Positions 3,147 to 34,544 of a stretch of DNA of 41,167 bases are shown piece after piece. Position 1 is the first letter of the stretch. Every line of letters begins with the position of its first letter. Source of the stretch: Nanobdellota archaeon (GTDB lineage Archaea > Nanobdellota > Nanobdellia > Pacearchaeales > GW2011-AR1); the NCBI GenBank assembly GCA_013329055.1, contig DUKY01000022.1, forward strand, positions 1 to 41,167, written 5' to 3'. The notes beneath the pieces are model-generated. The model ran no database searches and was not told the origin of the DNA. It worked only from the letters and a program-made list of their open reading frames with translations. The translations under genes and the position numbers were made by a program.

Positions 3147-3773
3147 ATGAGAAACAAACTTATCATCTTATTTGCTTTCGTATTAGTCTTTTCTGTATTT
3201 CCTCAAGCAGTTTCAGCAGATTTAATAATTCCCGGAACAAAATCTGTAAACTGGTGTTATGAAATTTCAAATGTTGATGATTATCCAAATTATGTTTTTG
3301 TTTTCAATGAAGAAAGAGTTACAGGTCATAGAGTAATTAATCAAGGTGATTGTTTTAGTTTTTACAAAATTGGTTTAACAAGTATTTATGCAATTCCTAA
3401 AACAGAATTCAACGAAAGTGAGTTAAACCGGGAATTTTTTGAAGAAAACAATCCCCAACTAATTAAATCAAATATTCAACTAAATGCTTTCGGCTCAGTG
3501 CAAGAAAATGATCCGTTACAAAAAGCAGTCATAACTTTAGATATTATATCATTGAGTGAAAGCAGTTTTGGTATCCAAAAATCCAAAGTAACTTATACTT
3601 ATACAGACGGAACATCTGAAGAAAAAGTTTTTCAATCTCAAGAAATTATGCCCGAACCTTCAAAAACCGCCATTATGCCTTGGTGGTTTGCTAAATTCTG
3701 GTACATCATTTTACCGATAGTAGCTATTGTCTTGATAGGCATAATTCTTTTAGTAAGACGATTGAAAAAATGA
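3147..3773 (+). CDS. Secreted, membrane-anchored protein of unknown function
   Basis: The N-terminus MRNKLIILFAFVLVFSVFPQAVSA is a signal peptide with an AxA-like cleavage site. Near the C-terminus FWYIILPIVAIVLIGIILLVRRLKK forms a membrane helix followed by a basic stop-transfer tail. The roughly 155-residue region between should lie outside the cell and has two cysteines (near NWCYEIS and GDCFSFY) that could form a disulfide. The last 4 nt overlap the start of the next gene (ATGA), so the two are translationally coupled. The pair fills the interval between elements A and B. I recognise no family. Confidence 0.7.
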   Translation: MRNKLIILFAFVLVFSVFPQAVSADLIIPGTKSVNWCYEISNVDDYPNYVFVFNEERVTGHRVINQGDCFSFYKIGLTSIYAIPKTEFNESELNREFFEENNPQLIKSNIQLNAFGSVQENDPLQKAVITLDIISLSESSFGIQKSKVTYTYTDGTSEEKVFQSQEIMPEPSKTAIMPWWFAKFWYIILPIVAIVLIGIILLVRRLKK

Positions 3774-33056: not shown

Positions 33057-33548
33057 ATGGGATTAAAACAACCAGTTTATAGGGATTTATATGAAGTTGT
33101 TAATAAACTTAGGGACCTTGAAATAAAAGGTTCTTTGTCTTCCAAGAGTTTAAAAGGATTAAGTAAATTAATTGTTAAACTTGAAGAGATTGCCAAAATC
33201 GGACAAGAAAATCTTGAAGTTTGCTCAGATGTATTTCCTGATGAAGAAGATTTTAATGATGAAGAAAAAACTTATGCCTGTTTAACTGGTGAATGTTTGC
33301 GTCACAGTAAATCTCCTGGCAAATTATATTCCTGTAAATATGAGAAAAAAAGGAATTGTGATACAAAGGGTTACCTTAATCGTAATGTTGATACTGGTAA
33401 TAAACCAAAAAAGATTGATGTTTGTCCTCTTTTTGCCAGATATGATCCTTGGAATGGATCTAATGCAGAGAGTGATTCTATATCTTGTAATTCTAAATCT
33501 CCCAAAACTATTGAGTTAATGGCTACTTGGGGAATTAAATTAAGATAA
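33057..33548 (+). CDS. Hypothetical protein with cysteine-rich C-terminal half (163 aa)
   Basis: Helical N-terminal part (YRDLYEVVNKLRDLEIKGSLSSKSLKGLSKLIVKLEEIAKIG) followed by several cysteines (LEVCSDVF, YACLTGECLRH, YSCKYEKKRNCDTKG, DVCPLFARYD, ISCNSKSP) that could bind a metal. No recognised family. TATA-like TCTTTAAATAC at about 33025-33035 supports the ATG. It is divergent from mre11. Confidence 0.6.
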   Translation: MGLKQPVYRDLYEVVNKLRDLEIKGSLSSKSLKGLSKLIVKLEEIAKIGQENLEVCSDVFPDEEDFNDEEKTYACLTGECLRHSKSPGKLYSCKYEKKRNCDTKGYLNRNVDTGNKPKKIDVCPLFARYDPWNGSNAESDSISCNSKSPKTIELMATWGIKLR

Positions 33549-34001
33549 TTGCGGAGCGGTGATATCTCTAAACTCAAGCCCACACTTGCGACTTTTAAAA
33601 TTTGCTTTCAGAATATTATGCAAGTGTAAACTTTCTACTCAAGCCCACACTCGTATCAGGGGCTATCATGAAAACTCGTGTAAACTTTCGGCCTTCGTGA
33701 ATGCCACGGGTTTTTTGAATTATTTTAAATTGTTAATTCAAGAACATACAATTCTTCAAAATGAAAGGAACCCCTTGGTTCCCTTCAACCCTCCTCGAAA
33801 TCTGGAAGGGTGGTATCTCTTTTAGCCTTCTAGGATACCACATAGAATGTGAACCCGCTGGTTTCCTCAGAAAATTTGTAGAATTAAATTTTCTGGGACA
33901 TTCAAAAGGCGATACTTTTGAAGTTTTCAAGCTTCCTCAAATTGCGGAGCGGTGGCATTTTTCTGAACCTTCGTGAATGCCACGGGTTTTTTGAATTATT
34001 T
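33549..34001. repeat. Hairpin-rich non-coding island with a duplicated gene 3' end
   Basis: A 453-nt gene-free stretch between two convergent genes. It starts with AATTGCGGAGCGGTG (again at 33940-33954). Two related units follow, each with CTCAAGCCCACACT and TGTAAACTTTC (33573-33633 and 33638-33690). Next are a 70-nt segment (33692-33761) repeated at 33968-34038 and at least six consecutive hairpins. Among these are GGAACC/GGTTCC (33767), GTGGTATC/GATACCAC (33811), CAGAAAATTT/AAATTTTCTG (33868), TTCAAAAG/CTTTTGAA (33901) and GTGGCATT/AATGCCAC (33952). The 70-nt repeat includes the last 12 codons of the adjacent methyltransferase gene. Open frames here are not credible. Confidence 0.75.
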
Positions 34002-34544
34002 TTAAATTGTTAATTCAAGAACATACAATTCTTCAAAAAACATTTTTTTTGTATCTATTATTTTTTTATTATAGTCCAACCAATTAATTTGTCTTGTAAG
34101 TGAACTGATTAATAAAAATATTTTACCATCTTTGTTTAAATGGTCTTTTGCTTGTTTCAAAAATTCATTAATAATTTCACTGCCTTCTTTTCCCCCTGTT
34201 GTTGCAAGTTTTGAATCTTTTGGTTCTTTTTTGTCTTCAGGTAAATAAGGGGGGTTAAATATTATTATATCATATTTATCATTAATTTTTTCAAAAAGAT
34301 TTGATTCTATACAATTAAATCCTAACTTTTGGCAATGAATTACTGCCTCATGATTAATGTCTGCAGAAAAGATTTTTTCTTTTTCAATTCCCAGATTTAA
34401 TAATGTTTGAATTTGTATTCCTGAGCCGGGTCCAATTTCTAAAATTTTTAATGATTTTTCTTTATTTATTAATCTAGGAATATTTTCTTTTAAAACTTTT
34501 GAAAGAAGGTATGAATCTTCTTCAGGGGTATAAATTTCAGGCAT
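34002..34544 (-). CDS. HemK2/Mtq2-like glutamine methyltransferase
   Basis: A 180-residue SAM methyltransferase: YTPEEDSYLLSKVL start, ILEIGPGSGIQIQTLL (motif I), FSADINHEAVIHCQKLG and IIFNPPYLPED, the (N)PPY motif for amide-nitrogen methylation. The short single-domain form matches archaeal/eukaryotic HemK2 (Mtq2), which methylates the GGQ glutamine of release factor aRF1. The gene overlaps the upstream membrane-protein gene by 8 nt. Its last 12 codons are copied at 33723-33761. Confidence 0.9.
   Translation of the reverse strand: MPEIYTPEEDSYLLSKVLKENIPRLINKEKSLKILEIGPGSGIQIQTLLNLGIEKEKIFSADINHEAVIHCQKLGFNCIESNLFEKINDKYDIIIFNPPYLPEDKKEPKDSKLATTGGKEGSEIINEFLKQAKDHLNKDGKIFLLISSLTRQINWLDYNKKIIDTKKMFFEELYVLELTI

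What the first reader, a model, noticed from the sequence alone, without database searches (positions are those of the whole stretch)
33549..34040. Chain of adjacent hairpins containing a copied end of the neighbouring methyltransferase gene
Roughly 450 nt with at least six consecutive perfect or near-perfect hairpins, an internal pair of related units (CTCAAGCCCACACT ... TGTAAACTTTC), a repeated GCGGAGCGGTG, and a 70-nt direct repeat including the last 12 codons of the HemK2-like gene. The insertion may have arrived by duplicating its target, or may be a structured RNA locus. It resembles no element I can name.
Basis: seen in the sequence. Interest (0 to 1): 0.65.

Follow-up and report, generated by a model that had tools for sequence, protein, structure and literature searches.

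The report
Nested hairpin repeats invading an archaeal genome
The odd stretch is not a one-off: it is a mosaic of short hairpin-forming repeats that have spread to dozens of places in this Pacearchaeota (tiny archaeon) genome and its relatives, including inside a DNA polymerase gene and inside a tRNA intron, and what moves them is unknown.

Summary
The stretch is a mosaic of a dispersed repeat. Its ~82-nt core has three stems (H1, H2, H3). A covariance model finds 60 copies in this 1.19-Mb genome and 2-13 in seven other genomes of Pacearchaeota or close kin. H1 and H3 keep pairing through compensatory changes. Two hairpin modules, X and Y, sit at fixed places inside the core; X is in the H3 loop in three lineages. 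One core lies in frame, antisense, at the same polB loop in three genera; another fills the tRNA-Lys(CUU) intron of one genome. Five copies besides the window's have 21-42-nt direct repeats in their flanks. Left ends abut stop codons, start codons or tRNA/SRP-RNA ends far more often than random intergenic positions. Best reading: a non-autonomous palindromic mobile-element family, working like Rickettsia palindromic elements or mitochondrial hairpin elements. Rfam lacks it, and this genome shows no Y1 transposase or reverse transcriptase. The mover and the reason for the boundary preference are unknown.

The parts
33549..33707 (+). Truncated core unit (H2 3' arm, H3 left arm GTGATATC, H3 right arm GAATGCCAC) with two X modules in the H3 loop; directly follows the stop codon of the ORF 33057-33548
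33573..33635 (+). Module X1: hairpin AAG-CCC-ACACTTGC ... GCAAGTGT-AAA-CTT
   Evidence: related X in G012 and SI047_bin24
33638..33689 (+). Module X2, second tandem X of the ACACTCG...CTCGTGT type
33708..33761 (-). First copy of the 54-nt direct repeat: copied 3' end (stop and last ~12 codons plus 3' flank) of the methyltransferase gene
33762..33843 (+). Core unit 1, complete (H1 33764-33788, H2, H3 33810-33841)
   Evidence: (E 1.4e-23)
33848..33983 (+). Core unit 2, interrupted in the H1 3' arm by module Y
33867..33924 (+). Module Y: two hairpins, TCAGAAAATTT..AAATTTTCTGGGA and ATTCAAAAG..CTTTTGAAGT
   Evidence: Y-like sequence also stands apart from cores (L029, L041-L044)
33984..34038 (-). 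Second copy of the direct repeat (55 nt), containing the true 3' end of the methyltransferase gene
34002..34544 (-).

Best explanation
The stretch is a mosaic of a non-autonomous, palindromic mobile-element family of Pacearchaeota. The unit is an ~82-nt core of three stems (H1 AAAAGGAACC-CCTT-GGTTCCTTTT; H2 around CTCCTCGAA; H3 GTGGCATC...GATGCCAC). Extra hairpin modules ride inside it (X in the H3 loop, Y in the H1 arm) and units form tandem arrays. Shown: dispersal to many unrelated places, conserved pairing, nesting at fixed positions, occupation of sites that are empty in relatives, and long direct repeats around some copies. Inferred: copies spread as folded single strands (DNA or RNA) by a host or borrowed enzyme acting in trans; they are joined at gene boundaries, or inside genes only where function survives (in-frame loop, intron, restored gene end); arrays then grow and shuffle by recombination between copies. 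In the window, an array of two cores, one carrying Y, was added beside a resident truncated core with two X modules, and the 54-nt gene end between them was duplicated, so the methyltransferase stayed intact.
For: 92 matches in own genome; 60 model hits in own genome and copies in G003, G012, G013, G007, G036, G037, G038; compensatory changes in H1/H3 and X; occupied and empty polB, tRNA-Lys and SRP RNA sites; polB insert in frame with open ORF; cores inside repeat T and X inside repeat S; flanking direct repeats of 21-55 nt in six arrays, random pairing 99th percentile 14.5 against scores 21-51.
Against: No mobilising enzyme identified; Y1 transposase and reverse transcriptase absent from the copy-richest genome (85% complete). 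Most copies show no detectable target duplication. No strain-level presence/absence polymorphism could be examined. Cross-genus identity of cores up to 90% against 70-77% for most polB DNA pairs hints at constraint that a purely selfish element need not have.
Confidence: 0.72

Rival explanations
1. The core is a functional gene-boundary element: as RNA or DNA structure it serves as 3'-end hairpin for the gene, tRNA or SRP RNA on its left, or as leader for a divergent gene, and selection keeps it where it lands. Dispersal would be secondary.
For: Left ends flush with stop codons (element supplies TAA/TGA), start codons, tRNA and SRP RNA ends in 11 of 22 own and 28 of 53 pooled cases, against 4.5% of eligible positions; pairing conserved; higher cross-genus identity than polB DNA. 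By eye, the reversed left end places GGTG about 7 nt before several start codons.
Against: Copies inside polB, a tRNA intron and other repeats have no boundary role; relatives do without it at the same sites; the SD-like variant does not track start-flush sites; X and Y interrupt the structure in many copies.
Confidence: 0.15
2. It is a MITE or REP-like repeat moved by a known transposase (IS200/IS605 Y1 type, or a DDE element) that lies in the missing 15% of the genome or in a partner organism or virus.
For: Short palindromic repeats are typical cargo; Y1 transposases exist in G003, G007, G013, once ~220 bp from a weak core copy (G013:C30).
Against: No Y1 in own, G012, G036, G037, G038 although copies are many; core ends are not inverted repeats of each other; direct repeats are long and variable, unlike DDE (short, fixed) or Y1 (none) by established knowledge. 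DDE families were not searched.
Confidence: 0.1
3. Chance local duplication in the window only, with no wider element.
For: The 54-nt repeat is preceded on both sides by 16 nt of element end and starts exactly at a resident element's end, as local recombination would give.
Against: Dozens of dispersed copies and copies in other genera.
Confidence: 0.03

Closest known systems
Rickettsia palindromic elements (RPE)
   Same: Short palindromic repeats, many families in one small genome, some inserted in frame in unrelated genes (PMC10969869, read).
   Different: Archaeal; ~82-nt core against ~150 bp; modular nesting; most copies lie at gene boundaries; no sequence comparison with RPEs was made.
Mitochondrial repetitive hairpin-forming elements (RHE, double hairpin elements, yeast GC clusters)
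   Same: Hairpins filling intergenic regions, tandem and composite forms, occasional copies in genes, no known enzyme (PMC2800124).
   Different: Cellular archaeal genome; three-stem core conserved across genera; long direct repeats around some copies.
MITEs
   Same: Short, non-coding, multi-copy, nested insertions.
   Different: No terminal inverted repeats, no fixed short target duplication, no parent transposon found.
REP/BIME elements with RAYT (Y1) transposases
   Same: Extragenic palindromes in mosaics.
   Different: Longer three-stem unit; no Y1 transposase in this genome.
Archaeal BHB tRNA introns
   Same: One copy makes up most of a tRNA-Lys intron at the canonical place.
   Different: The same site holds other introns in relatives; other copies lie outside tRNAs and the polB copy is antisense and in frame.

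Membership tests
Rickettsia palindromic elements | palindromic repeat inserted in frame in protein-coding genes | tested here: met
   polB insert in own, G012, G013, open frame; but it is one gene only
Rickettsia palindromic elements | sequence homology to RPE families | not tested
   no RPE sequence compared
MITE | terminal inverted repeats | tested here: not met
   core starts TAAAAG(G/A) and ends CCAC(ATGGAAT); each end folds on itself (H1, H3), not with the other
MITE | short target duplication of fixed length | tested here: not met
   direct repeats 21-55 nt in six arrays, none detected in most
REP/BIME with RAYT | Y1 (RAYT-type) transposase in the genome | tested here: not met
   PF01797 absent from own, G012, G036-G038; own genome is 85% complete
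Retroelement / SINE-like | reverse transcriptase in the genome | tested here: not met
   PF00078 absent from own, G012, G013, G037, G038; present in G003, G007, G036
Retroelement / SINE-like | long, variable target duplications | tested here: inconclusive
   seen in six arrays, but recombination or array structure explains some
Archaeal BHB intron | lies between exons and is removed from the RNA | tested here: not met
   true for one copy only; splicing itself not testable here
Known structured RNA (Rfam) | match at gathering score | tested here: not met
   none in window; only tRNA and SRP RNA in nine element loci
Mitochondrial RHE | dispersed hairpins in intergenic regions, sometimes in genes, without own enzyme | tested here: met
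   but these elements are defined in mitochondrial DNA, so this is 'works like'

The most novel reading that the evidence does not exclude
A new class of archaeal small mobile element that targets gene or transcript boundaries (stop codons, start codons, tRNA and SRP RNA ends). It copies itself through a folded single-stranded intermediate with long, variable target duplication, needs neither a Y1 transposase nor a reverse transcriptase of its host, and supplies stop codons or leaders to the genes it lands beside.
Probability: 0.2. Interest if true: 0.85.

Novelty: new variant of a known kind. Interest (0 to 1): 0.62.

Why it matters
DPANN archaea are thought of as streamlined. In the ~438 kb examined here (partly chosen because it holds copies) about 31 kb is repeated at least three times, much of it these and other hairpin families. 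An archaeal counterpart of RPEs or mitochondrial hairpin elements, with polB, tRNA-intron and SRP sites known both empty and occupied, makes two open questions testable: how hairpin-only repeats move, and how selfish DNA becomes protein or intron sequence. It is also a warning for annotation: such inserts can be mistaken for protein domains, introns or structured RNAs.

Tried and rejected
Rfam search of the window and nine loci: only tRNA and SRP RNA. Idea that the flanks are complementary, so that the element sits in the loop of a target palindrome: true for a few copies (L017, C13:35663, linker arrays) but not significant overall. Idea that the core is itself a spliced intron: rejected, since polB carries it antisense and in frame, and the tRNA-Lys site holds other introns in relatives. 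Idea that start-flush copies carry the SD-like GACACC variant and stop-flush copies do not: no clear split by eye. RNAalifold's consensus missed H1 because of an alignment gap, so H1 was tested with a structure I named. Single ancestral polB insertion: carriers lie in one clade of six but are not monophyletic, so repeated insertion, gene conversion and loss cannot be separated.

Full report
OBSERVATION. Rfam has nothing for it. It lies between a 163-aa ORF without a Pfam match and a methyltransferase gene read on the other strand (Pfam MTS).

THE DECISIVE FACT. The same stretch has 92 matches in its own 1.19-Mb genome, to different sub-parts. Reading the copies with their flanks gives the anatomy. 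A core of about 82 nt has H1 (AAAAGGAACC-CCTT-GGTTCCTTTT or AAAAGACACC-CGCT-GGTTTCTTTT), H2 (CCTCCTCGAA...TTGAAGGG or CTTCCTCAAATTGCGGAGC) and H3 (GTGGCATC...GATGCCAC, also GATATC/GATATC and GGTATC/GATACC). Units are joined in tandem by a linker hairpin (AAGCACGACAAT...GTTGTCGTGC) or by CACATAGAATGTG. Module X sits in the H3 loop, singly or doubled; module Y sits in the 3' arm of H1; a third, W, sits in H2 at two places. X, Y and W-like sequence also occur apart from cores. Cores lie inside another repeat family, T, and X inside a family S.

STRUCTURE IS CONSERVED. On 26 cores from three genomes, H1 is 86% and H3 96% paired, with 37 double-change cells against 14.8 expected from shuffles; sliding the partners destroys it. 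H2 is poorly supported (62% in its inner part). X from three lineages keeps AAG-CCC-ACAC...GTGT-AAA-CTT, with 4 pairs changed on both sides against 1.1 in shuffles. Many rows are related copies, so the shuffle counts are supportive, not probabilities.

DISTRIBUTION. A covariance model finds 60 copies in the own genome, 12 in G003, 9 in G012, 2 each in G013 and G007, and only marginal single hits in five of the other 31 genomes searched. A pattern scan of 84,980 species genomes hit only MAGs labelled Pacearchaeota, Nanoarchaeota or archaeon: RS_12_27 (its contigs match G012), NC_groundwater_1200, E14_metabat.bin.35 and SI047_bin24. The last three hold 13, 8 and 3 copies. Cores of different genera reach 90% identity, while polB coding DNA among five carriers is 70-77% identical apart from one sister pair at 83%. 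Strong constraint or recent exchange is implied; I cannot tell which. Families S and T were found in the own genome only (77 matches, 22 genomes searched).

SITES. (a) polB: an in-frame antisense core in the same loop (VITWK^...SYVEYV) in own, G012 and G013; the ORFs are open and long (861, 875, 850 aa; most close relatives 821-841). The loop is plain in G007, sister to G013. (b) tRNA-Lys(CUU): the G012 intron is 85 nt and is almost wholly a core; introns are 21 nt in own, 58 in G007, 70 in G013, 72 in G004, and none in G002, G011, G001. (c) SRP RNA 3' end: occupied in own and G037, empty in G004, G005 and G002. (d) Gene boundaries: among 53 non-tandem left ends, 28 lie within about 3 nt of a stop codon, start codon, tRNA end or SRP RNA end (26 called by script, the 2 SRP cases and the removal of 11 tandem units by eye). 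In the own genome this is 11 of 22, against 4.5% of eligible positions (p about 7e-10, still 2e-6 if the true background were 10%). The null uses ORF calls, not curated genes, and omits RNA genes. (e) Flanking direct repeats: window 54/55 nt, L015 42 nt, L168 39 nt, L169 39 nt with four mismatches, L017 about 37 nt, C13:35663 21 nt. In L168 and L169 the repeat is the 5' end of the downstream gene, which stays intact; in the window it is the 3' end of the methyltransferase gene, which stays intact. In L015 the repeat overlaps the linker hairpin, so part of it may be array structure.

HOW THE WINDOW AROSE (inferred). A truncated core with two X modules already lay beside the methyltransferase. 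An array of two cores, the second carrying Y, was added 54 nt further in, with that 54 nt duplicated. Because the repeat begins exactly where the resident core ends, one-sided recombination at the shared end CCTTCGTGAATGCCAC is as likely as a true target duplication.

MECHANISM (inferred). No reverse transcriptase and no Y1 transposase is seen in own, G012, G037 or G038. Long, variable direct repeats do not fit DDE transposases (short, fixed) or Y1 enzymes (none), from established knowledge. Capture of a folded strand at a wide staggered break, or template switching in replication, would fit; neither is shown. DDE transposase families were not searched.

KNOWN KINDS. It works like Rickettsia palindromic elements (PMC10969869) and mitochondrial repetitive hairpin elements (PMC2800124). 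It fails the inverted-repeat test for MITEs and, in this genome, the enzyme test for REP/RAYT. Literature searches for such repeats in DPANN archaea found none in the held library. That library lacks most subscription papers, so novelty is provisional.

Noticed in passing
own genome C18:104674-104806, C18:45648-45776, C14:20205-20336 and others: Family S: ~134-nt repeat forming one large stem (GGCTCTGTCCAGAATTAAG...CTTTGGACAGAGCC) with inner hairpins; own genome only among 22 searched.
   Followed up: partly
own genome C14:33539-33726, C13:29050-29225, C18:62639-63305 and others: Family T: long nested palindrome (AAAATTGTTTTTAAGATTTAAC...GTTAAATCTTAATTATTAAAAACAATTTT) with several further hairpin modules inserted; hosts core copies.
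   Followed up: partly
L019 and L020 (own C18:80300-81900, C18:98900-100700): Module W (GTCATTGAAAAGTCGTTATTC...GTTCAATAACTTCG) inside H2 of two cores; similar sequence in L028 and L040.
   Followed up: no
L086 (G012), L095 (G015), L074 (G003): Other short insertions elsewhere in polB of relatives (for example SQRVGGDSGFQGNFSKSQIP in G012), possibly other palindromic families.
   Followed up: no
L035 (own C2:47900-49076), about 690-880: Repeated segments with tRNA D-arm-like text (GTAGCTCAGTCTGGTTAG) and X-like hairpins; ARAGORN calls no tRNA.
   Followed up: no
L029, L041-L044 (own C19, C12, C26, C22, C17): Y-like double hairpins standing alone, several followed by GATTCGAA or by GTGCTAAAAAATTC..GAATTTTTGGCAACGC.
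   Followed up: no
L160 (G013), L146 (G004), L148 (G007): tRNA-Lys(CUU) introns of 58-72 nt that contain other hairpin sequence at the site where G012 has the core.
   Followed up: partly
G013:C30:2995-3078 and 3296-3640: A Y1 transposase gene lies ~220 bp from a weak core copy; may be coincidence.
   Followed up: no
G003:C5, G007:C9, G007:C18, G036:C8: Reverse transcriptase genes (RVT_1) in three related genomes; type not examined.
   Followed up: no
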